A stretch of DNA of 64,000 bases, from positions 1,922,001 to 1,986,000 of the forward strand of contig NZ_CP137080.1 of the NCBI RefSeq assembly GCF_036324365.1, read 5' to 3'. Shown piece by piece: positions 1 through 10,338 of the stretch. The notes beneath the pieces are model-generated. The model had not been told where the DNA came from, did no database searches, and was given only the letters and a program-made list of their open reading frames with translations. Source of the stretch: Microbacterium limosum (lineage in GTDB: Bacteria > Actinomycetota > Actinomycetes > Actinomycetales > Microbacteriaceae). The position numbers and the translations under genes are program-made. Positions within the stretch are counted from its first letter, which is position 1; each line of letters opens with the position of its first letter.

Positions 1-292
1 CTTCCCGAAGGCGCGGTACGGGCAGCACCAGATGGATCGCGTGCTCCTGGACGGCACGGACGTCGGCATCTCGCACGATGCCGGATACATCGTCGGCGAG
101 CAGGCCTTCGTCTCGCTGGCGAGCATCGCGGCCGAGCACGCCACGCCCGGCACCGAGGTCGTCGTCCTATGGGGAGAGGAGCCGAACACCACCAAGCCCT
201 CGGTGGAGCCCCACCGCCAGGTGGCGATCCGCGCCACGGTGGAGCCGGCCCCCTACTCGCGGTTCGCCCGAGAGAACTACCGCGCCGGCTGA
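1..292 (+). CDS. LigM-like demethylase, C-terminal fragment (5' end outside window)
   Basis: The window opens inside this gene: the frame is open from base 2 to the TGA at 290-292, leaving 96 residues. They match the C-terminal barrel of tetrahydrofolate-dependent O-demethylases of the LigM/DesA type (GcvT fold), which move a methyl group from a methoxylated aromatic acid to THF. Landmarks are FPKARYG at the start, DAGYI, VVLWGEE and EPHRQV. The complete paralogue at 1316-2689 shares the same landmarks, so this is a second copy. Its EPHRQ segment looks closer to LigM than the paralogue's does. A hairpin follows the stop. A sarcosine- or DMSP-type relative of the same fold cannot be excluded from the tail alone. 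Confidence 0.75.
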   Translation, partial: FPKARYGQHQMDRVLLDGTDVGISHDAGYIVGEQAFVSLASIAAEHATPGTEVVVLWGEEPNTTKPSVEPHRQVAIRATVEPAPYSRFARENYRAG

Positions 293-305
293 CCAGTCTC
301 CGCGC

Positions 306-355
306 GACGACGAACGCCGCCGCCTCTCGTGGAAGAGGGGGCGGCGTTCGTCGTC
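306..355. terminator. Bidirectional hairpin terminator
   Basis: A perfect 16-base stem (306-321 pairing with 340-355) with an 18-base loop lies between two convergent genes and overlaps the stop codon of the IclR gene. There is no T-tract on either side. Confidence 0.75.
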
Positions 356-1253
356 ACCGCGGCATCCCCTCCGACGCTCGCGCATCGCGCATCCCCGGAT
401 CGTGCGGATCGCGCGCGAGGCGCTCCAGATACTCGAGCGACCTGGTGGAGGCGCCCATGAGGGCGCGAAGACCTCGTGCGCCCTCATCTGCGTCGGGACG
501 ATAGGCGCGCGCGAGCTCACGCGCCGCACCGGCCGCCGCGCGCTGCAGCAGCTCGACGATCGGCTGCGGCGAGGATCCGTCGTTGGGCACGACGACGCCC
601 ATCGCGGCGTACACGGAGCCGTCGGGGCCCCGCACGGGCACGGCGACGCCGCGCGACTCCTCGTGGATGTGACCCGCCAGCTCGGCGTACCCCCTGGCGC
701 GCACGCGCCGCAGCTCGGCTCGCAGGCGCGATCCGGACGTGATCGTCTGGTCGGTGTACCGGCGAAGGCCGCGCGCGATCAGCTCGTCGACGACGCCCTC
801 GCCGGCATCCGCGAGCAGCACGAGCCCGCTGGAGGAGGCGTGCAGCGGGATGCGTCCCCCGATGAGCGTGGCGTTGAGCACGGCATCCCGGGCCGACATC
901 CTCTCGATGAAGAGCACGTCGCTGCCGCTGCGGATCCCCAGCTGCGCGTGCTGCCGCGCACGTTCGTGCACCGCCCCGAGCCACGGACGCGCGATCTCCC
1001 GGAGGCCCAGCGCGCCGGGTGTGCGGCTGGCGAACTCCCATAACCGCACACCCAGGCGATACGACCGGTCGGGCAGCCTCTCGAGCAGCCCCTCCCTCTC
1101 GAGCTCGGAGACGAGACGGTGGGCGCTGGAGCGGGCGAGGCCCGCGGCATCCGCGATCTCCGAGAGGGTCAGCGTCGGATGCCAGGGATCGAAGGCGTCG
1201 AGGATGCGCAGGTGCTTGTGCAGCACGCTCTCGCCCGCCGACCCTCTTGCCAC
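354..1253 (-). CDS. IclR-family transcriptional regulator
   Basis: 299 residues. An N-terminal winged helix-turn-helix (about residues 10-70, containing LSEIADAAGLARSSAHRLV) is followed by an IclR effector-binding domain (about 75-255), recognisable from FIERMSARDAVL, HASSSG and RGVAVPVRGPDG. The last 35-40 residues extend beyond the usual family length. The GTG start at 1253 is supported by GAGGAGG five bases upstream; a TAGCAT box lies further up. It is on the same strand as the LigM-like gene, 62 bases downstream, so the two may be co-transcribed. IclR proteins commonly control aromatic or C1 catabolism from a short palindrome; 2756-2774 is the obvious candidate site. Effector unknown. Confidence 0.85.
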   Translation of the reverse strand: MARGSAGESVLHKHLRILDAFDPWHPTLTLSEIADAAGLARSSAHRLVSELEREGLLERLPDRSYRLGVRLWEFASRTPGALGLREIARPWLGAVHERARQHAQLGIRSGSDVLFIERMSARDAVLNATLIGGRIPLHASSSGLVLLADAGEGVVDELIARGLRRYTDQTITSGSRLRAELRRVRARGYAELAGHIHEESRGVAVPVRGPDGSVYAAMGVVVPNDGSSPQPIVELLQRAAAGAARELARAYRPDADEGARGLRALMGASTRSLEYLERLARDPHDPGMRDARASEGMPR

Positions 1254-1315
1254 CGCGTCCTCCTCGACATCGGCGCCATGCTACCTGCCGGGGACGGGCG
1301 CCGACGCCGCCCGAG

Positions 1316-2689
1316 TCAGTCGTCGGCGCGATATACGGTGCGCGCCCACTCGTGGTACGGAGCCGGTGCGACCGTCGCGCGGATCCGGACCTGGCGGTGC
1401 GACGCGTCGACGGAGTCCTTGCGCGAGATCGGGTCCTCGCCCCACACGACCTCGACCTCGGCTCCGTCCGCCACGTCGTTGTCGACCGTGGCGAGGGACA
1501 TGTAGAGCTGGTCGTAGGCGATGTACCCCGCGTCGGTGGAGATGCCCGCCGGCCGGTCGTGGTAGCGCACCTCGTCCATCTGGAACAGTCCGTAGCGCGC
1601 CTTCGGGAAGTCGAGGAACTTCGCCGGCACGCCGGGCTCCATCTGCGACCGGACGACCGCCGCGACGTCCTCCGCGTTCCAGAGCAGCGTCACCTTCCGG
1701 CGGCGCTGGTCGGCCGCGTGACGCTCGAGGGCCTCGCGCCCGTGGAAGTCGTGGTCGAAGCGCACGGAACGACCGAGCCCCAGGTCGTAGGGCGTCATGT
1801 AGTAGTCGTGGATGTCGTCGGAGTACAGCGAACCGGCGACCGATCCGGCGCGTGCGGCCGGCAGCCACTCCCGGTACTCGGCGAAGTCGTCGCCGAAGAT
1901 CGCGGGGAACGGCGTGGGCACCCACCCCGACTCCAGCGGCGTGGCGGAGTATGCCTTGGCCCCGACGCGCCGGATGCCGAACTCCTCGCCCGCGGTCAGG
2001 ATCTCCGCGAGCACGGCATCCGCATCGGCCCAGGGACCGTAGAACTCGAACCCCGGCTGGCCCGCCATGCCGTGGCGGAGGGCCTTGACGGCCCGACCGG
2101 CGATCGTGACGTCGCCGATGTGGAAGAACTTGATCTCGGGGGCGGGCCCCCCGAAGATCTTCTCCATCACCTTGTCCGCCTCGGGGCCCTGCAGCTCGTA
2201 GCGGTAGAACGTGGGCGGCCCCTGGCGCATGTGGGAGTTCGCCTCGAGGCGGTGGTGCACGTCCTTGCCCGCGGCCTGCGCCTTCTCGACGTTGAAGCGC
2301 ACCCAGTCGATCAACAGGTGGTGACCGATGAGCACGAGTCCCTCGGGCGCGTCCTCGTTGTAGAAGAGGATGCCGTCGCCGATGAGGTATCCCTCCGCAT
2401 TGACGCAGATGAGCTGCTTGGCGACGCCCGGCCGGAAGGTCGAGAAGGTGTTGGGCGAGATCGACGCCAGCAGCGGCAGCAGGTCGGCGCCGCCCAGGAA
2501 GAGCTGCGTCATGTGGTGCGACTGGTCCATGAGCGCCACGGTGGTGTTCCACGCCCGCTGCTCGTCGCGCCAGTTGGTGAACTCGGGCGCGACGGGGAAC
2601 GTGAACGCCGGCCAATTCTGGTTGCGCAGCAGCTCTACAGCGGACCCTGAGCGGGCGATCGCCTCGGCGAGGGATTCTTCAGATGTCAT
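1316..2689 (-). CDS. LigM-like tetrahydrofolate-dependent O-demethylase
   Basis: 457 residues. From memory it resembles Sphingobium LigM (vanillate demethylase) along its length: VAPEFTNWRDEQ near residue 35, MDQSHHM near 55, LRHGMAGQPG near 205, AYSATPLESGWVPTP near 245, and the C-terminal HRQVRIRAT barrel. Such enzymes need no cofactor other than THF and release 5-methyl-THF in the cytoplasm. Of the two adjacent ATG codons, 2689 has AGGAAGG six bases upstream; an in-frame ATG at 2767 has no such signal. It diverges from the transporter operon and precedes the IclR gene. Substrate is inferred: vanillate-like acids are the best guess; syringate, methoxybenzoate or another methyl donor is possible. 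Confidence 0.75.
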   Translation of the reverse strand: MTSEESLAEAIARSGSAVELLRNQNWPAFTFPVAPEFTNWRDEQRAWNTTVALMDQSHHMTQLFLGGADLLPLLASISPNTFSTFRPGVAKQLICVNAEGYLIGDGILFYNEDAPEGLVLIGHHLLIDWVRFNVEKAQAAGKDVHHRLEANSHMRQGPPTFYRYELQGPEADKVMEKIFGGPAPEIKFFHIGDVTIAGRAVKALRHGMAGQPGFEFYGPWADADAVLAEILTAGEEFGIRRVGAKAYSATPLESGWVPTPFPAIFGDDFAEYREWLPAARAGSVAGSLYSDDIHDYYMTPYDLGLGRSVRFDHDFHGREALERHAADQRRRKVTLLWNAEDVAAVVRSQMEPGVPAKFLDFPKARYGLFQMDEVRYHDRPAGISTDAGYIAYDQLYMSLATVDNDVADGAEVEVVWGEDPISRKDSVDASHRQVRIRATVAPAPYHEWARTVYRADD

Positions 2690-2720
2690 CATCGACCTTC
2701 CTGATCGTGGGTTCAGCGTC

Positions 2721-2726
2721 ATGGTA
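2721..2726 (-). promoter_or_regulatory. Candidate -10 box of the LigM-like gene
   Basis: TACCAT on the minus strand, about 32 bases before the start codon. The -35 position (GCGGAA) is poor, which would fit a promoter needing an activator bound just upstream. Confidence 0.4.
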
Positions 2727-2755
2727 GGCACCGCCGGTTCGCCTTCCGCCGATCT

Positions 2756-2774
2756 GATTCCGTTCATCGGAATC
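2756..2774. promoter_or_regulatory. 19-base palindrome, candidate IclR operator
   Basis: GATTCCG and CGGAATC flank a 5-base spacer as a perfect inverted repeat in the divergent region between the LigM-like gene and the transporter operon. It lies just upstream of the -35 position of the LigM-like promoter, where an activator would bind. Two direct copies of CACGATTCG, related to the half-site, sit at 2802-2810 and 2835-2843. Size and layout suit an IclR dimer; the link to the nearby regulator is inference. Confidence 0.55.
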
Positions 2775-2874
2775 GCACCGGCGACGCACCCCGACGACGA
2801 GCACGATTCGATGAGTCTTGACGATCTCGGGCATCACGATTCGGACACTACGTTTGGATCTCACACCAATATCG

Positions 2875-2903
2875 TTGACAATTTCCACGGGACTCCGTAC
2901 CGT
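2875..2903 (+). promoter_or_regulatory. Sigma70-type promoter of the liv-type operon
   Basis: Consensus TTGACA (2875-2880), a 17-base spacer and TACCGT (2898-2903) form the best housekeeping promoter in the window. Transcription would begin near 2910 and give a leader of about 50 bases. Confidence 0.75.
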
Positions 2904-2958
2904 CCCAGTGACGGGGACTCCCTGTCGACAGCAACGACGCGACGACGGAAGGTGAGCG

Positions 2959-3741
2959 ATGGCCGCTCGGCTCACGCTGCATGAGGTGACCCTGCGCTTC
3001 GGCGGGGTCAAGGTGCTCCAGGATGTCGGCTTCACCGTCGAGCCCGGTCAGATCTTCGGCCTGGTGGGCCCGAACGGCGCGGGCAAGACCTCGCTCTTCA
3101 ACTGCATCAGCGGCCACTACCACCCGAACTCCGGATCGATCACGATCGACGAGACCGAGGTGCTGGGCAACGCCCCCTCCCGCCTCGCCAGACACGGCCT
3201 GGCGCGCACTTTCCAGCATCCCGCCCTCCAGCTCCACGCCACCGTGCTCGAGAACGTGCTTCTCGGCGCCCACACACATCTGCCCGGCGGCCCCGTCAGC
3301 TGGTCCCTGCGGCTGCCCTACACGGGTCGGGCCGAAAAGGACCGCCGCGAGGAGGCCCGCGCCCTCCTGGAGCGCAACGGCCTCGGATGGGCCGCCGACC
3401 TCCCGGCCGACGAGCTCTCGCACGGGCTCCACAAGGGGATCGAGCTCTGTCGCGCCCTGCTGATGAGGCCCCGTCTGCTGCTGCTGGACGAGCCCGCCGC
3501 CGGGCTCTCCCACGGCGAGGTGGAGCAGTTCAGCGACTCGATCAAGCGTCTGCGCGAGGAGGAGGACATCACGATCGTGATCGTCGAGCACCACATGGGG
3601 CTCATCGCGGCGCTCACCGACCGCGTCGTCGTCCTCGACCACGGCCGCGTCCTCATGGAGGGCACGGCCGCCCAGGCGCAGTCGGACCCGCGGGTCATCG
3701 AGGCCTACATCGGCAAGGAGGCCACGGATGACGCTGCTTGA
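2959..3741 (+). CDS. livG: ABC transporter ATPase, LivG type
   Basis: 260 residues; first ATPase of a branched-chain-amino-acid-type importer. Walker A GPNGAGKT is at 37-44, Walker B LLLLDEP near 175, and the H-loop histidine in IVEHHMG near 210. The signature motif is unusual: LSHGLHKG replaces the LSxGQ form, although the LivG subgroup is known to vary here. The ATG at 2959 follows GGAAGGTGAGCG. Its 3' end overlaps the next gene by 14 bases, so the operon is translationally coupled. With the LigM-like gene next door the cargo may be an aromatic or methylated acid rather than an amino acid. Confidence 0.88.
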   Translation: MAARLTLHEVTLRFGGVKVLQDVGFTVEPGQIFGLVGPNGAGKTSLFNCISGHYHPNSGSITIDETEVLGNAPSRLARHGLARTFQHPALQLHATVLENVLLGAHTHLPGGPVSWSLRLPYTGRAEKDRREEARALLERNGLGWAADLPADELSHGLHKGIELCRALLMRPRLLLLDEPAAGLSHGEVEQFSDSIKRLREEEDITIVIVEHHMGLIAALTDRVVVLDHGRVLMEGTAAQAQSDPRVIEAYIGKEATDDAA

Positions 3742-4438
3742 GCTGGAGAACGTCACCGCCTACTACGGGCCGGTCCAGGTCCTCGAAGGCGTCTCGCTGA
3801 GCGTGCCGGACGGCGGCGCGGTCGGCATCCTCGGGGCCAACGGCGCGGGCAAGACCACGACGCTGCGTGCCATCAGCGGCACCGTCCGGGCGGGCGGGCG
3901 GATCGTGTTCGACGGCCAGGACATCCGCGGCATGCGACCCGACAAGGTCGCGGCGCTGGGGATCGCGCACGTCCCCGAGGGACGCGGCACGCTCGGAAAC
4001 CTCACGGTGCGGGAGAACCTGCGCGTCGGCGCGTACCTCCGCAAGGACCGCAAGCAGATCGGCCCCGACATCGACTATCTGCTCGAACTGTTCCCCCAGC
4101 TGCGGGAACGGATCTCCTCTGCCGCGTCCGCGCTGTCGGGGGGCGAGCAGCAGATGCTCGCCGTCGCGCGCGCCGTCATGGCCAAGCCCCGCCTGCTCCT
4201 TCTCGACGAGGCCTCGCTGGGTCTCGCGCCGAGCACCGCCCGCAACGTCTACGACGCGATCCGCCGACTGCGTCAGGACTCCGGGCTTGCGATGCTCGTC
4301 GTCGAGCAGAACGCGAACCTGGCCTTCTCCCTCGTCGACACCGCGACGGTGCTCGAGACGGGCCGCAATGTCCTCACCGGAACCTCGACCGAGCTCAAGG
4401 GCATGGACGAGATCCGCCGCGCTTACCTGGGAGGCTGA
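3728..4438 (+). CDS. livF: ABC transporter ATPase, LivF type
   Basis: 236 residues, the second ATPase, expected to pair with LivG on the cytoplasmic face of the LivH-LivM channel. Walker A GANGAGKT is at 36-43, the signature LSGGEQQ at 136-142, Walker B LLLLDE ending at E161, and the H-loop region reads VVEQNANLAF, as usual for LivF. DEA stands where DEP is common, which should not affect catalysis. The start overlaps livG by 14 bases, and livH begins two bases after the stop. Confidence 0.9.
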   Translation: MTLLELENVTAYYGPVQVLEGVSLSVPDGGAVGILGANGAGKTTTLRAISGTVRAGGRIVFDGQDIRGMRPDKVAALGIAHVPEGRGTLGNLTVRENLRVGAYLRKDRKQIGPDIDYLLELFPQLRERISSAASALSGGEQQMLAVARAVMAKPRLLLLDEASLGLAPSTARNVYDAIRRLRQDSGLAMLVVEQNANLAFSLVDTATVLETGRNVLTGTSTELKGMDEIRRAYLGG

Positions 4439-4440
4439 CC

Positions 4441-5322
4441 GTGGGTACCTTCGTGCAGCTGGTCATCGACGGGCTCTCCGCCGGATCGATCTACGCCGCG
4501 CTCGCCCTGGCCATCGTGCTGGTCAATCAGGCGACGGGCCTGATCAACTTCGCCCAAGGCGGCATGGCCGTGCTCTCGGCCTACATCGCCTACGCGTTCC
4601 TCGGCTGGGGGCTTCCGCTCATCCTCGCGATCGTCGCGGCCGTCGTCGTCTCGTTCGCGATGGGCGCGGTCATCGAACGCTTCCTCATCCGCCGCTTCGA
4701 GGGCGGCGACCCCGACACCGCGATCGTGGTGACGGTGGGCCTGCTGACCCTCATCACGGGCATCGCCGGCTGGATCTGGACGTACAACAACCTCCAGTTC
4801 CCGTCGCTCTTCCCCGTCGCGAGCATCGACGTCCTCGGCGCCGTCGTGAGCGTGCGTTCGCTCGGCACAACCGTGGTGATCATCGCGATCATGGTTCTGC
4901 TGCAGCTCGTGTTCCTGCGCACCAAGCTCGGGCTCGCGCTGCGAGCCGTCGCCGACAACCCGCAGTCGGCATCCTTCTCGGGCCTGCCGGTCGGCTGGCT
5001 CCTCATGGTCGGCTGGGGTATGGCCGCGGCGCTCGGCGCCGTCGCCGGAGCGCTCGTCGCACCTCAGCTCACCCTCACGCCCGGCATGATGGACACCGCT
5101 CTGGTCTACGCACTCGCCGCCATCATCCTCGGAGGCATGTCGAGCCCCCTCGGCGTGGTCATCGCTGCCTGGCTCATCGGTGTGCTCGAGAACCTCGCCG
5201 CCGTCTACGTGCCCGCAATCGGACACGACCTGAAGATCGCGGTGCCCTTCATCCTGATCTTCGTCGTGCTGATCGTCCGCCCCCAGGGCCTGTTCGGCCG
5301 GAAAGTCGTGGTGCGCGTCTGA
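4441..5322 (+). CDS. livH: ABC transporter permease, LivH type
   Basis: 293 residues with about eight membrane segments. LINFAQGGMAVLSAYIAY near residue 35 is typical of LivH permeases, as is the loop with LRAVADNPQSASFSGL near 170. The GTG at 4441 is only two bases after the livF stop. The TGA overlaps the ATG of livM in the form TGATG, implying coupled translation. It forms half of the import channel; specificity is set mainly by the binding protein at the end of the operon. Confidence 0.9.
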   Translation: MGTFVQLVIDGLSAGSIYAALALAIVLVNQATGLINFAQGGMAVLSAYIAYAFLGWGLPLILAIVAAVVVSFAMGAVIERFLIRRFEGGDPDTAIVVTVGLLTLITGIAGWIWTYNNLQFPSLFPVASIDVLGAVVSVRSLGTTVVIIAIMVLLQLVFLRTKLGLALRAVADNPQSASFSGLPVGWLLMVGWGMAAALGAVAGALVAPQLTLTPGMMDTALVYALAAIILGGMSSPLGVVIAAWLIGVLENLAAVYVPAIGHDLKIAVPFILIFVVLIVRPQGLFGRKVVVRV

Positions 5323-6392
5323 TGTCCACCAGCCTCTCTCTCCTTCGTTCCCCGTGGGTCCGCGGCGGGCTGCTCGTGCTCGTCGCCGCCCTCCTGCTCG
5401 TGGCACCCCTCGTGCTGCCGGTGTTCTGGAACCAGTCGCTGACCCGCGTCGGCGTCTTCGCCGTCGCGGTCCTCGGCCTGAACCTCATCATGGGCTACAC
5501 AGGAGTCGTCTCCCTGGGTCAGATCTTCTTCCTCGGGGTGGGAGCCTACGTCGCCGCCTACGGGGTCACGAACGACTGGAACATCGTCCTCGTGTTCGTG
5601 CTCTCGGTGCTGATCCCGGGTGCGCTGGGGCTTCTGATCGCCCTCGCCGCCGCGCGGCTCGGAGGCCTCGCCATCGCGATGGTGACGATCGCGCTGCCGA
5701 TCGTCGGAGTGCCGCTCGCCAAACGGCTCTCGGAGTTCACCGGCGGTTCGCAGGGCATCTCGGCTCGGTTTTCGGGAGCCCCCGAGTGGACCGGACTCGA
5801 CAACGACCAGTGGCAGTTCTACATCGTCCTCGTCATCGGGGGCGCAGCGTTCGTCCTCGCGCGCAACCTCGTGCGCGGCAAGTTCGGCCGGGCGCTCGCG
5901 ATCGTGCGCGACAACGAGGCCGTGGCATCCTCGATGGGCATCTCCCCATACCGCTACAAGGTCATGGCGTTCACGATCGCATCGATGTTCGGGGGCGTCA
6001 GCGGGTTCCTCTACCTCGCCGCGGTGCAGTACACCTCCCCGGAGACGATGGCCTTCCACCACTCGATCGAGCTCCTCGCCGCCATGGTGATCGGTGGCGC
6101 CGGCAGCATCATCGGATCCCTCATCGGGGGTGCGTACTACGTCTTCGTGCCCCAGATCACCAACGCCATCGCCGCCGACCTCACCGCCGTCATCCAGGGC
6201 GCGATCCTGCTCATCGTGCTCTTCGTGCTCCCCGGCGGCCTGGTCAGCCTTCCCCGCACCATCCGGCGCCTGCTCCGCCGCAACAGCGGCTCGGGATCCT
6301 CGGGCGCCGATCACACCCCTCCCCCGCGCGAGCCCGCTCCGGCCGGCACGTCGGGACAACCCGGAAACACAGAGAGGCACGGCAACACATGA
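5322..6392 (+). CDS. livM: ABC transporter permease, LivM type
   Basis: 356 residues with about nine or ten membrane helices. LNLIMGYTGVVSLGQIFFLGVG near residue 48 onward (visible as GYTGVVSLGQ) and IRDNEAVASSMGIS-like sequence (here VRDNEAVASSMG, near 202) mark the LivM permease family. The last 30-40 residues form a Pro/Ser-rich cytoplasmic tail. The ATG at 5322 overlaps the livH stop; the end overlaps the next start by four bases (ATGA). It is the second half of the import channel. Confidence 0.9.
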   Translation: MSTSLSLLRSPWVRGGLLVLVAALLLVAPLVLPVFWNQSLTRVGVFAVAVLGLNLIMGYTGVVSLGQIFFLGVGAYVAAYGVTNDWNIVLVFVLSVLIPGALGLLIALAAARLGGLAIAMVTIALPIVGVPLAKRLSEFTGGSQGISARFSGAPEWTGLDNDQWQFYIVLVIGGAAFVLARNLVRGKFGRALAIVRDNEAVASSMGISPYRYKVMAFTIASMFGGVSGFLYLAAVQYTSPETMAFHHSIELLAAMVIGGAGSIIGSLIGGAYYVFVPQITNAIAADLTAVIQGAILLIVLFVLPGGLVSLPRTIRRLLRRNSGSGSSGADHTPPPREPAPAGTSGQPGNTERHGNT

Positions 6393-7654
6393 ACATCTCC
6401 AGGAAGCACAGCCGAGCGGTCGGCATCGTGGCCGCCGCCAGCGCGCTCGCACTCGTCGTCGCGGGATGCAGCGCCCGCGACGACGGTGGCGACGGCGACG
6501 GCGACGGCGCCGCATCGAGCCCCGGCATCACCGACGACTCGATCACGCTCGGCATCACCACGCCGCTGAGCGGCGCGACGGCCGGCCCGGGCACCTGCAC
6601 GGTCGCAGGCGTCACGGCGTACTTCGGCGCGGTGAACGCCGCCGGAGGCGTCGAGTTCGGCGACGGCGTCACCCGTACGGTCGAGATCGAGACCTACGAC
6701 GACGCCTACGACCCGCAGCAGTCCCTCGCGAACTTCCAGCAGATGGTCGCCGACGACGTCTTCGCCGTCACGGCCGGGCTCGGAACCCCCACCAACCGGG
6801 CGTTCCGCGAGGCCGCGATCGACGAAGAGGTACCCCAGGTGCTCGTCATGACCGGCGACCCGCTCTTCAGCGACCGCGAGGAGAGCCCGTGGCAGCTCGG
6901 CTTCGTGCCGATCTATCAGAACGAGGGCGCCGCCTTCGGCGAGCTGCTGGCCACCTCGACCGAGGAGCACAAGGTCGCCATCCTCTCCCAGAACGACGAC
7001 TACGGCGAGGGCTACGTCGAGGGCTTCAAGGAGGCCATCGAAGGTGCCGACAACATCGAGATCGTCGGGGAGCTCACCTATGAGGCCACCGACACCTCGG
7101 TGGACGCGCAGCTCACCGAGCTCGCCGGCACGGGTGCCGACGTCTTCTTCAACGCGATGTCGATCACCCCGCTCGTGATCTCGTCGCTGCAGAAGACGCA
7201 GGAGCTCGGCTGGCTGCCCAGCTGGTTCCTCCCCTCCAACACCTCGAGCCCCACCGCGATCCTGCAGCCGGGCAACGCCACGGCCTTCCCCGGCGTCTAC
7301 TCGGTGTCGTTCTCCAAGGCGCCCGCCTCGCCGGCGTTCGCCGAGGACGAGGACGTGCAGACGTTCCTGTCCGACCTGGCCGAGTACGCCGACTACCCCG
7401 ACATGCCCGCGTTCCCGCACTGCATGTGGAGCTACATGGTGGGGGCGACGCTCGAGCAGGCGTTCCAGAACATGACCGAGCCGACGCGGGAGAACTTCCT
7501 CGCGGCGCTCAACGACATCTCGGACTTCCAGGCGCCGCTGATGCTCGACGGCACGTACGTCGACACCACGGTCGACGGTCAGCCCGCCGTGTCCACGGTC
7601 ATCGTGCAGAAGTACAACGGCACCGGCTACTCGAACGCCGAGACCTTCGAATGA
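6389..7654 (+). CDS. Periplasmic-binding-type lipoprotein of the liv-type importer
   Basis: 421 residues. A Lys/Arg-rich N-terminus, a hydrophobic stretch and the lipobox VVAGC near residue 24 mark a lipoprotein anchored outside the membrane. A low-complexity DGGDGDGDG linker follows, then a Leu/Ile/Val-type binding domain (ITLGITTPLSG at its start, ILSQNDDYGEGYVEGF in the middle). Members of this family also bind aromatic acids and amides, which would suit the neighbouring demethylases. It overlaps livM by four bases and is the last gene of the five-gene operon before a strong hairpin. The ligand cannot be read from sequence. Confidence 0.85.
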   Translation: MNISRKHSRAVGIVAAASALALVVAGCSARDDGGDGDGDGAASSPGITDDSITLGITTPLSGATAGPGTCTVAGVTAYFGAVNAAGGVEFGDGVTRTVEIETYDDAYDPQQSLANFQQMVADDVFAVTAGLGTPTNRAFREAAIDEEVPQVLVMTGDPLFSDREESPWQLGFVPIYQNEGAAFGELLATSTEEHKVAILSQNDDYGEGYVEGFKEAIEGADNIEIVGELTYEATDTSVDAQLTELAGTGADVFFNAMSITPLVISSLQKTQELGWLPSWFLPSNTSSPTAILQPGNATAFPGVYSVSFSKAPASPAFAEDEDVQTFLSDLAEYADYPDMPAFPHCMWSYMVGATLEQAFQNMTEPTRENFLAALNDISDFQAPLMLDGTYVDTTVDGQPAVSTVIVQKYNGTGYSNAETFE

Positions 7655-7669
7655 TCCGGTAGGCGACAC

Positions 7670-7714
7670 ACGTCGAATCCCCCGTCCGCAGCACGCGGGC
7701 GGGGGATTCGACGT
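7670..7714. terminator. Bidirectional hairpin terminator
   Basis: A 20-base stem (7670-7689 with 7695-7714) with one G-T wobble and a 5-base loop lies between the convergent binding-protein and GntR genes. There is no T-tract. Confidence 0.85.
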
Positions 7715-7771
7715 ATGCGCGCGACACGCGGCCGGCGGCGGCGCGCGAAGAGGACCCCCGCGTCGCGCGCG

Positions 7772-8431
7772 TCAGTCGAGCTGACGCAGCAGGGCGACGA
7801 TCCCCTGCAGGTGCTGGCGGGTCGCGGCCTCGGCGCGATCCGGATCCCGCGCGACCACGGCGTCGATGATGGCGACGTGCTCGGGCGCCGACTGCACGGC
7901 GCGTCCGGGGTGGTAGGCGAGGCGGAACTGGTGGCGCGCGGACTGCGCGCGCAGCCGCTCGAGGAGCCGGGTGGCGGTGTCGTGTCCGCTGATCTCACGG
8001 ATGCGCCGGTCCATATCCTGATTCAGGCGTGCGTACTCGACGAGATTCCCCGTCGCGACAGCCGACTCGATCTGACCACCGAGGAGCCGCAGCTCGGCGG
8101 CCTCGTCCTCGGTCACCCGCTCCGCGGCCTTCCGCGCGCACAACGACTCCAGACCCACGCGCACCTCGACGATCTCGATCGCCTCGGCCACGCTGATCGC
8201 GCGCACCCTCGCGCCCCGGTTCGGGAGCCGCTCGACGAGCCCCTCCCCCGCGAGATTGAGCAGGGCGGTGCGCACGCCCGCGCGGCTCGCCTCGAAGCGC
8301 TCGCTGATGTCGGCCTCGATAAGACGCTGATGCGGGGCGAACTCACCGCCCAGGATGGCGTCGCGGATCTGCTGCGTCAGGTCGGGGCGTGAATGAACCT
8401 CCGACTCCATGGTGGCGGGCCCGGAAACCAC
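7772..8431 (-). CDS. GntR-family regulator, FCD (FadR-like) subgroup
   Basis: 219 residues. A winged helix (about 15-80, with LIEADISERFEASRAGVRTALLNL) is followed by an all-helical FCD effector domain (about 90-215) in which the metal or ligand histidines are visible (RHQFRLAYH, PEHVAII). The GTG at 8431 has AGGAGG seven bases upstream, better than the internal ATG at 8410. It diverges from the aldehyde dehydrogenase gene and probably controls it and itself. FCD regulators usually act as repressors released by small organic acids. Its inducer could be an intermediate of the pathway encoded in this island. Confidence 0.87.
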   Translation of the reverse strand: MVSGPATMESEVHSRPDLTQQIRDAILGGEFAPHQRLIEADISERFEASRAGVRTALLNLAGEGLVERLPNRGARVRAISVAEAIEIVEVRVGLESLCARKAAERVTEDEAAELRLLGGQIESAVATGNLVEYARLNQDMDRRIREISGHDTATRLLERLRAQSARHQFRLAYHPGRAVQSAPEHVAIIDAVVARDPDRAEAATRQHLQGIVALLRQLD

Positions 8432-8506
8432 GTGCCGACCTCCTGATCACTCGAGGACGGCACCCTCGCCGCCCGGCCTTTTCCGACAGTACCGCACGCC
8501 TCGATT

Positions 8507-8541
8507 TTGGCGACGACATTTGCGCCAATCCGGGTTAGCAT
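8507..8541. promoter_or_regulatory. Inverted repeat and -10 box before the aldehyde dehydrogenase
   Basis: TTGGCG (8507-8512) and CGCCAA (8523-8528) form an inverted repeat with a 10-base spacer, followed by a candidate -10 box TAGCAT (8536-8541). The repeat covers the -35 region, a repressor-like position. The adjacent GntR protein is the likely binder (inference). Confidence 0.4.
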
Positions 8542-8682
8542 CGTGGTCACAACGTCGCAATGCCTCCTCCGTCGCACGGGCCGCCCCGGCTCGGCCGCGG
8601 CGGGCGTGAGCGGATGGACGAGCGCACCGCCGCATTCTCAACGGCGCACAAGCGCAAGCGAACACAGAGAAGTGGAGTCGAT

Positions 8683-10179
8683 ATGTCTGTAGTCGAGACG
8701 TCCGCGGGTGTGCGGACGGGGTTGTTCATCGGGGGCGTGGAGCGTCATACCGGTGAGGTGTTGAGTGTGGTGGATCCGGCGAGGCCGGGTGTGGTGGTCG
8801 GTGAGGCCGCGTCGGCGTCGGCGGGGGATGTCGCGGACGCGGTCGCGGCGGCGAACGCGGCGTTCCCGGCGTGGTCGGGGTTGTCGGCGGCGGAGCGGGC
8901 CGGGTTGATGGCCGACGCGATCGCGGGGATCGGGGATGATCGGGACGCGGACGCGGAGATCTTGTCGTTGGAGAACGGGAAGGTGCGGTTGGAGGCGTGG
9001 GTGGACGCGCTGGTGTTCGAGATCCGGTGGAACCTCGCGTTGATGCTCGCCGACGAGGTCGAGGCGTCCAAGACGCTGCCGGTGGTCCCCGGACACATCC
9101 CCGTCTCCACCGAGGTGTCCTACCAGCCGTTGGGTGCGGTGACGATCATCGTGCCGTTCAACTGGCCCATCGCGATCCTGGGAGCGGCGCTGCCCCACGC
9201 GCTGCTGGCGGGGAACACCGCGATCGTCAAGCCGCCGCCCTCGGCGCCGCTGGCGACCACCCGGCTGGTGCAGCGGGTGGCGGAGAAACTACCCGCCGGG
9301 GTGCTGAACATCGTCACCGGCAAGGACGAGAACATGTCCGGCCTGATCCAGAACACCGACATCGCGAAGGTCTGCTTCACCGGGTCCGTCGGCGGCGGCA
9401 AGCGCATCGCCGAGATGGCCGCCCGCTCCCTCACCCGCGTCACCCTGGAACTGGGCGGCAACGACGCGGCGGTGTTCCTGGAAGACGCGATCCTCGATGA
9501 CACCCACCTGGACCGCCTCTACGCCGCGATCTACGACAGCACCGGACAGATCTGCATGAACGCCAAACGCGTCTTCGTGCACCGCTCCCGCCTGGACGAA
9601 CTCGTCACCGGCCTGGAAAACCGCCTGAAAAACGTCGTCCTCGGACACGGCCTGGACCAGGCCACCACCATGGGACCCCTCCACCAGGGCGCGCAGAAAG
9701 CATTCGTGGAAGAGATCATCCAAGAAGCCAAAGACGCCGGCGCCGACGTCCGCGAATACGGCACCCTCCCCACCGGAGACCTCGCCGGCGGCAACTTCCT
9801 CCGCCCCGCGATCGTCATCGACCCCGACCCGGGCCTGCGCGTGGTCACCCAGGAACAATTCGGACCCGTCATCCCCATCATCCCCTTCGACACCGAAGAC
9901 GAAGCCATCCGCCTCGCCAACGACACCTGGGGCGGACTGTGCGGATCGGTCTGGACCGCCGACCCCGACACCGCCCACCGCGTCGGCTCCCAACTGATCT
10001 GCGGATACGTCTGGATCAACGACCACGGCGCCACCCGCCTCGACCTCCGCGCCCCCTTCGGCGGCATGAAGCAATCCGGCTACGGCCGCGAACAAGGAAT
10101 CGAAGGCATCCGCGCCTTCCAAGACACCCGCTCCATCGCCACCATCGACCCCCAAGCCCTCGCAAACATGGCCCACTAA
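8683..10179 (+). CDS. NAD(P)-dependent aldehyde dehydrogenase
   Basis: 498 residues of the ALDH superfamily, oxidising an aldehyde to its acid. Visible catalytic residues are N160 (PFNWP), K183 (VKPPP), E256 (LELGGN) and the nucleophile C291 (GQICMN). The ATG at 8683 follows AGTGGAG. Base use is odd: codons in about the first 120 residues end mostly in G or T (TTG for Leu, GCG, CCG, GGG), while the last 250 or so end mostly in C or A, including AAA and GAA, which neighbours avoid. It diverges from the GntR gene and ends at a perfect hairpin. In this context an aryl aldehyde such as vanillin is plausible but unproven. Confidence 0.85.
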   Translation: MSVVETSAGVRTGLFIGGVERHTGEVLSVVDPARPGVVVGEAASASAGDVADAVAAANAAFPAWSGLSAAERAGLMADAIAGIGDDRDADAEILSLENGKVRLEAWVDALVFEIRWNLALMLADEVEASKTLPVVPGHIPVSTEVSYQPLGAVTIIVPFNWPIAILGAALPHALLAGNTAIVKPPPSAPLATTRLVQRVAEKLPAGVLNIVTGKDENMSGLIQNTDIAKVCFTGSVGGGKRIAEMAARSLTRVTLELGGNDAAVFLEDAILDDTHLDRLYAAIYDSTGQICMNAKRVFVHRSRLDELVTGLENRLKNVVLGHGLDQATTMGPLHQGAQKAFVEEIIQEAKDAGADVREYGTLPTGDLAGGNFLRPAIVIDPDPGLRVVTQEQFGPVIPIIPFDTEDEAIRLANDTWGGLCGSVWTADPDTAHRVGSQLICGYVWINDHGATRLDLRAPFGGMKQSGYGREQGIEGIRAFQDTRSIATIDPQALANMAH

Positions 10180-10188
10180 CACCACGAC

Positions 10189-10225
10189 CGTGAGGCCCGC
10201 ACCTGGCGCAGGTGCGGGCCTCACG
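10189..10225. terminator. Hairpin terminator after the aldehyde dehydrogenase
   Basis: A perfect 17-base stem (10189-10205 with 10209-10225) with a 3-base loop begins nine bases after the stop codon. Confidence 0.85.
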
Positions 10226-10338
10226 CACGTCCGGGGCCGGGATCCGAGCGCTCCGCCAGCCGCCGGGTGTCCCCTCTCACGCCGGGGGGAAGTACGGTCG
10301 TGGTGGAGCGACAACCGCCCCAGGATCAGGAACCCCCG

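What the first reader, a model, noticed from the sequence alone, without database searches (positions are those of the whole stretch)
1..10225. Candidate uptake and demethylation island with two LigM-like enzymes
Two LigM-type THF-dependent demethylases, a complete liv-type importer, an aldehyde dehydrogenase and two catabolic-type regulators sit together. LigM enzymes are known mainly from Proteobacteria such as Sphingobium; an actinobacterial set with a dedicated importer would be a distinct route for methoxylated compounds. Enzyme families are read from conserved motifs; the pathway and substrate are inferred.
Basis: partly seen in the sequence, partly recalled or inferred. Interest (0 to 1): 0.72.

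Follow-up and report, generated by a model that had tools for sequence, protein, structure and literature searches.

The report
Actinobacterial syringate-to-gallate lignin breakdown island
A soil-type actinobacterium carries a gene set that appears to import methoxylated lignin acids, strip their methyl groups onto folate, and open the resulting gallate ring with an enzyme of a different family from the known gallate-opening enzymes.

Summary
The window (2.79-Mb genome, genus Microbacterium) holds the last 96 codons of one LigM-like gene, a whole second one, a complete Liv-type importer, IclR and GntR regulators and an aldehyde dehydrogenase. Just upstream lie a third copy that is a true LigM by score and tree, plus a 4-oxalomesaconate tautomerase, an aldolase, a LigJ-type hydratase (reading frame broken here) and a catechol-2,3-dioxygenase-type (VOC, type I) ring-cleavage enzyme. 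The window's two enzymes are neither LigM nor DesA orthologs: they form a third, actinobacterial branch that keeps the catalytic tyrosine but lacks an arginine shared by LigM and DesA. LigM-like gene, VOC, tautomerase and importer lipoprotein occur together in the same 27 of 119 genus genomes. The VOC gene adjoins gallate-pathway genes in 27 of 28 genus genomes that have it and in 10 of 10 further genomes of the phylum, and lies in a tannase operon in Agrobacterium. Best reading: uptake and folate-dependent demethylation of syringate, 3-O-methylgallate and vanillate, then gallate opened by a putative type I gallate dioxygenase in place of type II DesB/GalA. Function is inferred throughout; nothing was measured.

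The parts
1..292 (+). C-terminal 96 codons of LigM_B, a LigM/DesA-like THF-dependent O-demethylase of the third (actinobacterial) branch; whole gene L006:18428-19792
   Evidence: (568.9 bits DesA, 512.8 LigM; cut-offs 800, 580)
354..1253 (-). IclR-family regulator (nearest named subfamily PcaR/PcaU/PobR, below its cut-off)
   Evidence: 133.4 bits, cut-off 284.75
1316..2692 (-). LigM_C, LigM/DesA-like O-demethylase of the third branch (open frame reaches 2767; start near 2692 inferred)
   Evidence: (482 bits DesA, 444.7 LigM)
2758..2772 (.). conserved palindrome TTCCGTTCATCGGAA, candidate IclR-type operator (regulator assignment inferred)
   Evidence: (form seen in 14 of 17 aligned intergenic regions)
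2871..2882 (+). conserved ATCGTTGACAAT, candidate GntR-type operator upstream of livG (regulator assignment inferred)
   Evidence: exact in 13 of 17 aligned intergenic regions; one match in window with up to 2 mismatches, 1.16 expected: not significant alone
2959..3741 (+). LivG-type ATPase
3728..4438 (+). LivF-type ATPase
4441..5322 (+). LivH-type permease
5319..6392 (+). LivM-type permease
6389..7654 (+). substrate-binding lipoprotein (Peripla_BP_6)
   Evidence: co-occurs with LigM in genus
7772..8431 (-). GntR/FCD regulator
   Evidence: beside the importer in relatives
8683..10179 (+). aldehyde dehydrogenase (aromatic-aldehyde role inferred); a 99% identical copy lies near LigM_E

Best explanation
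A catabolic island for methoxylated phenolic acids of syringyl (and guaiacyl) lignin. The Liv importer brings in the acid; the ALDH (and upstream ADH) feed aldehydes or alcohols into it; LigM-family enzymes move the O-methyl groups to tetrahydrofolate (LigM_B/LigM_C for a first step such as syringate to 3-O-methylgallate, LigM_A for 3-O-methylgallate to gallate and vanillate to protocatechuate). Methyl-folate is recycled by MetF, PurU and a MetE-like protein. Gallate is then opened by the VOC (type I) extradiol dioxygenase to 4-oxalomesaconate, which passes through GalD (tautomerase), GalB or a LigJ-type hydratase, and GalC (aldolase) to pyruvate and oxaloacetate. Shown: gene content, orthology, neighbourhood, conserved active-site residues. 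Inferred: every substrate and reaction, and which LigM copy does which step.
For: LigM_A 906 bits and LigM_E 876 against cut-off 580, both inside the LigM clade with proteobacterial LigM. Catalytic Tyr column invariant in all groups. GalC passes NF006731 (282.5, cut-off 179); GalD 422. GalB of relatives matches solved OMA hydratase 5cgz (253 bits); the own genome has instead two pieces of a LigJ-type OMA hydratase (6dxq 245 bits for the C piece). In the 119-genome genus sample the LigM-like, VOC, GalD and lipoprotein genes occur together in the same 27 genomes. VOC starts or ends within 100 bp of GalD in 27 of 28 genus genomes with VOC. Outside the genus, 10 of 10 phylum genomes with a VOC at 54% identity or more have it beside GalB/GalC/GalD. 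Agrobacterium pAt: GalB-VOC-GalC-GalD-tannase with a Liv importer alongside. No type II LigB at 1e-10 in the own genome or in 25 of the 27, nor in 6 of 6 f18 genomes with VOC. In two Sinomonas genomes importer, GntR, LigM_A, LigM_C, VOC, ALDH, MetF, PurU and LigM_E lie in one stretch (L018, L031).
Against: No activity, ligand or expression data. In this genome the LigJ-type hydratase lies in two reading frames and no GalB was found (best 25 bits), so the route may be broken or there may be a sequence error. GalD is just under its curated cut-off (422 of 440). All four f5 genomes with VOC also have LigB genes, and in Roseomonas the VOC lies beside LigAB. LigM_B/C lack the arginine that LigM and DesA share, so their substrate may not be an acid of the same kind. 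Co-occurrence counts are not corrected for kinship; the LigB-versus-VOC contrast in the genus is weak (Fisher p 0.037).
Confidence: 0.74

Rival explanations
1. The VOC enzyme cleaves 3-O-methylgallate (or another methoxycatechol) rather than gallate, so the last demethylation is bypassed.
For: The gene is beside LigM genes in Microbacterium, and SYK-6 also opens 3-O-methylgallate directly by DesZ/LigAB (PMC8027834 passage).
Against: The same operon occurs without LigM nearby in f5 genomes (L130, L131) and with a tannase in Agrobacterium, where gallate is the expected substrate; the next enzymes use 4-oxalomesaconate.
Confidence: 0.14
2. The island is mainly a vanillate/protocatechuate route and the gallate operon serves plant gallate; the LigM copies are not coupled to it.
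For: The own genome has intradiol dioxygenase genes (PF00775); LigM can act on vanillate.
Against: LigM-like gene, VOC, GalD and lipoprotein share the same 27 of 119 genomes; LigM_A adjoins GalB-GalC-GalD-VOC in 16 of 16 relatives fetched.
Confidence: 0.1
3. LigM_B and LigM_C act on non-acid methoxyphenols (syringaldehyde, guaiacol, acetosyringone type) and the importer carries those.
For: Arg in the LigM/DesA column is His/Trp in B and His in C; two further Arg are replaced by Asn and Pro; ADH and ALDH genes in the island.
Against: The role of that Arg is recalled, not tested here; the neighbouring pathway starts from an acid.
Confidence: 0.25

Closest known systems
Sphingobium sp. SYK-6 vanillate/syringate pathway (DesA, LigM, DesB, metF, ligH; LigJ, LigK, LigU)
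   Same: THF-dependent demethylation by LigM-family enzymes, methyl-folate recycling genes nearby, gallate to 4-oxalomesaconate to aldolase products (DesA/LigM/DesB roles: PMC6888825 passages)
   Different: actinobacterial; three LigM-family genes in one island; a third enzyme branch in place of DesA; VOC dioxygenase in place of type II DesB; Liv importer; GntR/IclR/LysR regulators where SYK-6 uses DesR (MarR) and LigR
Pseudomonas gallate pathway GalA-GalB-GalC-GalD (recalled; GalB structure 5cgz and GalC/GalD families)
   Same: GalB, GalC, GalD homologs in one operon
   Different: ring cleavage by a type I VOC enzyme, not the type II GalA
Actinobacterial LigM-type and DesA-like aminomethyltransferases in thermophilic MAGs (PMC9296663, passages and section 17)
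   Same: actinobacterial DesA-like branch with conserved methyl-transfer tyrosine
   Different: those passages describe no importer, no gallate operon and no VOC dioxygenase
Rhodococcus opacus plasmid pRop44186_a cluster
   Same: LigM, a second LigM-like gene, MetF, PurU, FolD, GalB, GalC
   Different: carries LigAB (type II) and no VOC found in the stretch; no Liv importer there

Membership tests
LigM (vanillate/3-O-methylgallate O-demethylase, NF047885) | curated score 580 | tested here: not met
   LigM_C 444.7, LigM_B 512.8, LigM_D 420.8. LigM_A 906.0 and LigM_E 875.7 meet it. The cut-off is not fully specific: three DesA references also pass it (616, 620, 635).
LigM | falls in the LigM clade | tested here: not met
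   window LigM_C and LigM_B in a separate clade (SH-aLRT 97); LigM_A and LigM_E inside the LigM clade (52 of 173 distinct rows used, quick tree)
DesA (syringate O-demethylase, NF047633) | curated score 800 | tested here: not met
   LigM_C 482.0, LigM_B 568.9, LigM_A 619.9, LigM_E 612.9, LigM_D 474.7; references 901, 840, 850 pass
THF-dependent aryl-O-demethylases as a superfamily | catalytic tyrosine (LigM Tyr247, number recalled) | tested here: met
   window Tyr273 of the long frame; invariant in all five paralogs and in all groups
THF-dependent aryl-O-demethylases | methyl transfer to tetrahydrofolate | not testable with these tools
   needs an enzyme assay
DmdA / sarcosine / GcvT enzymes | best match to those models | tested here: not met
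   GcvT 69.6, DmdA 42.2, SoxA 29.8 bits against 482/445
GalA/DesB type II gallate dioxygenase | LigB (PF02900) domain gene in the genome | tested here: not met
   no match at 1e-10 in the own genome
Type I extradiol dioxygenase (VOC) | 2-His-1-Glu metal triad (positions recalled) and family score | tested here: met
   His156, His218/219, Glu270 in at least 58 of 59 copies aligned; TIGR03211 287 bits, under its own cut-off 320, so not a catechol 2,3-dioxygenase equivalog
Gallate dioxygenase (as an activity) | turns gallate into 4-oxalomesaconate | not testable with these tools
   operon context only
4-oxalomesaconate tautomerase GalD (NF033377) | curated score 440 | tested here: not met
   422.1 bits, just under
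CHA aldolase GalC/LigK | NF006731 score 179 | tested here: met
   282.5 bits; TIGR02798 255.7 is under its cut-off 304.5
OMA hydratase | intact GalB or LigJ gene | tested here: not met
   own genome: LigJ-type in two frames, no GalB; 16 of 16 relatives fetched have GalB there
Liv-type importer | two ATPases, two permeases, binding protein | tested here: met
   ligand not testable

The most novel reading that the evidence does not exclude
A second, unrelated kind of gallate dioxygenase exists: a VOC-superfamily (type I) extradiol enzyme that opens gallate in the GalBCD operons of Microbacterium, of two other actinobacterial groups and of Agrobacterium. In Microbacterium it is fed by a third lineage of folate-dependent aryl-O-demethylases, distinct from LigM and DesA, giving Actinobacteria their own syringyl-lignin route.
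Probability: 0.6. Interest if true: 0.74.

Novelty: new variant of a known kind. Interest (0 to 1): 0.6.

Why it matters
[quoted passage not shown] This island would extend an aerobic route to common actinobacteria, give a gene marker for it, and name a ring-cleavage enzyme that annotation now calls catechol 2,3-dioxygenase or VOC protein. It fits field data in which Microbacterium and unclassified Microbacteriaceae took up label from veratric acid in groundwater (PMC10602745, passages). The enzymes are of use for lignin conversion, and the question (is it a type I gallate dioxygenase?) can be settled by one assay.

Tried and rejected
Considered and rejected: DmdA, GcvT or sarcosine branch; window genes as LigM or DesA orthologs; a defence role (no PADLOC match); protocatechuate 4,5-cleavage (no LigB in the genome; no conserved gene cluster among those I listed looked like LigC or LigI, judged by eye).

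Led nowhere: PDB neighbours of the lipoprotein are generic Leu/Ile/Val-type proteins (best 48 bits) and do not name a ligand; plasmid relatives of it reach 33%; the nearest solved structure to the VOC enzyme, 9wgj, is named catechol 1,2-dioxygenase and no held paper mentions it. The 'tannase' rows at 26-29% in Microbacterium loci were not pursued. GntR-type motif: no other exact copy in the window or in L006, L008; the palindrome was not found in L006. LigM_D placement is unsure (long branch joined to a Halobellus protein). Structure prediction and fold search were not used.

Literature: call numbers 22, 23, 33, 45, 61, 62, 93, 100 were read as listings; passages or sections were read only for PMC9296663, PMC8027834, PMC10602745, PMC7295907, PMC4250580, PMC6888825. 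None of what I saw reports a VOC gallate dioxygenase; the library lacks most subscription papers.
Full report
What is in the window. The first 10.2 kb hold, in order: the last 96 codons of a LigM-like gene (LigM_B, 1-292, +), an IclR regulator (354-1253, -), a whole LigM-like gene (LigM_C, about 1316-2692, -), LivG, LivF, LivH, LivM and a substrate-binding lipoprotein (2959-7654, +), a GntR/FCD regulator (7772-8431, -) and an aldehyde dehydrogenase (8683-10179, +). An ABC protein of the permease-ATPase type follows at 10267 and was not tied to the island. The window is G000:C1:1922001-1986000 of a one-contig genome of 2,792,796 bases. The genus is Microbacterium: two 'same genus' genomes have contigs of exactly the lengths of named records, G051:C1 518,244 (M. 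kunmingense) and G074:C4 912,295 (M. salsuginis).

What lies just outside. The genome has five LigM-like genes. Upstream of the window (L006) are, going away from it: LigM_B, a LysR regulator, LigM_A, and on the other strand genes for an RraA-type aldolase (GalC), a PrpF-type 4-oxalomesaconate tautomerase (GalD), a catechol-2,3-dioxygenase-type VOC enzyme and a zinc alcohol dehydrogenase, then a LigJ-type amidohydrolase. The fifth gene, LigM_E, lies at 2.616 Mb next to MetF and PurU and near an aldehyde dehydrogenase 99% identical to the window's. A MetE-like gene is at 2.446 Mb and an intradiol dioxygenase pair at 2.588 Mb.

What the demethylases are. LigM_A and LigM_E score 906 and 876 with the LigM model (cut-off 580); LigM_B and LigM_C score 569/513 and 482/445 with the DesA/LigM models (cut-offs 800/580) and so belong to neither. 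Three sphingomonad references scoring 840-901 with DesA also pass the LigM cut-off, so the cut-off alone is not proof; the tree is. In a quick tree of 52 of 173 distinct rows, LigM_A and LigM_E fall among LigM with proteobacterial members, DesA is sister to LigM, and LigM_B and LigM_C fall in a third clade (SH-aLRT 97), LigM_C as a long, tight subclade (100). The catalytic tyrosine column is invariant. The column of LigM Arg122 (number and role recalled) is Arg in 63 of 63 LigM and 4 of 4 DesA rows, His in 32 of 32 LigM_C rows and mainly His or Trp in 59 LigM_B rows; two further Arg columns become Asn and Pro. The substrate of this branch may therefore differ.

What the neighbours say. LigM_C orthologs with the importer beside them occur in Microbacterium, Agromyces, Sinomonas, Tersicoccus, Naasia and others, and the importer at 70-86% identity (LivM 67% in one) also adjoins LigM_A/LigM_B in Blastococcus and Geodermatophilus (L048, L050, L056, L061). 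In two Sinomonas genomes (L018, L031) importer, GntR, LigM_A, LigM_C, VOC, ALDH, MetF, PurU, LigM_E and PadR lie in one stretch. In 119 genomes of the genus, 29 have a LigM-like gene, 28 the VOC gene, 31 a GalD relative (28 of them above 350 bits, three near 165), 27 the lipoprotein; the same 27 genomes have all four. In those 27 the VOC and GalD genes are within 100 bp. I fetched 16 of the 26 other genomes of this set: all 16 have a GalB gene between LigM_A and GalC, which matches the solved hydratase 5cgz, and 11 have the MetE-like gene nearby.

Why gallate. GalB/GalC/GalD act on 4-oxalomesaconate and its products, so the ring opener must make it. The own genome has no type II LigB gene at 1e-10, nor do 25 of the 27 (LigB in G054 and G110). 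In 296 genomes of the phylum the VOC gene occurs at 54% identity or more in ten genomes outside the genus, and in all ten it adjoins GalB, GalC or GalD: six of family f18, which also have LigM genes (within 10 kb in five; in the sixth the VOC contig is only 11 kb) and no LigB, and four of f5, which have no LigM at 1e-60 but do have LigB genes. The eleventh, G272 at 37%, was not examined. On an Agrobacterium plasmid the order is GalB-VOC-GalC-GalD-tannase, with a Liv importer beside it; that importer is only 27-42% identical to ours, so similar in place rather than orthologous. In Roseomonas the VOC lies beside LigAB, a case that does not decide. Of 59 VOC copies fetched (some genes fetched twice, most through LigM, so biased), 58 are at least 54% identical and each of these has a Gal or LigM gene within 6 kb except the Roseomonas one; the 59th (38%) lies in a catechol-type operon. 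The metal-ligand His and Glu columns are kept in at least 58 of 59. The closest database of ring-cleavage enzymes I saw files gallate dioxygenases under LigB only (PMC4250580, passages).

Regulation. Between LigM_C and LivG, ATCGTTGACAAT is exact in 13 of 17 aligned regions and a TTCCRTTSANNNGAA palindrome is seen in 14 of 17 (in the window 2871-2882 and 2758-2772). Their match to GntR- and IclR-type operators is recalled; within the window alone the first motif is not significant.

Weak points. The LigJ-type hydratase of this genome lies in two frames while three relatives are open, and no GalB was found: either a sequence error or a broken route in this strain. No activity is known for any protein here. 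Kinship was not corrected for in the counts (Fisher LigM/VOC 2.7e-23, LigB/VOC 0.037).

Verdict.

Noticed in passing
G000:C1:47.6-60.8 kb (L007:7590-15754, L109:1-4804): LigM_D, an isolated LigM-like gene, is followed by a split PEP-synthase-like dikinase pair, a HAD phosphatase, and a catechol meta-cleavage set (dmpE-type hydratase, catechol 2,3-dioxygenase, PurU copy). It reads like guaiacol-type demethylation, perhaps through a phosphorylated phenol.
   Followed up: partly
window 8683-10179 and L008:2516-4066: Two aldehyde dehydrogenase genes 0.69 Mb apart are 493/498 identical: recent duplication or gene conversion.
   Followed up: no
L006:10604-11659: LigJ-type hydratase gene lies in two overlapping reading frames; relatives in L032, L049 and L059 are open.
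   Followed up: partly
L119, L120, L124-L129; u5 in L090, L095, L100, L101, L106: A DUF1932 NAD-binding protein recurs beside the VOC/Gal genes in Roseomonas, Agrobacterium, family f18 and (30% identical) five Microbacterium loci; role unknown.
   Followed up: no
G000:C1:343627-344862: A second lipoprotein 60% identical to the island's binding protein.
   Followed up: no
L137 (Halobellus limi plasmid): A haloarchaeon carries a DesA/LigM-like gene (516/455 bits) next to MetF and an IclR regulator.
   Followed up: no
L121 (Rhodococcus opacus plasmid pRop44186_a): LigM, a LigM_B-like gene, folate genes including pabB, LigAB, GalB and GalC together on a mobilizable plasmid.
   Followed up: no
G013 and G091: Six and thirteen LigM-like matches in single genus genomes (G091 is 68% complete and many of its matches are partial), hinting at wider paralog families.
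   Followed up: no
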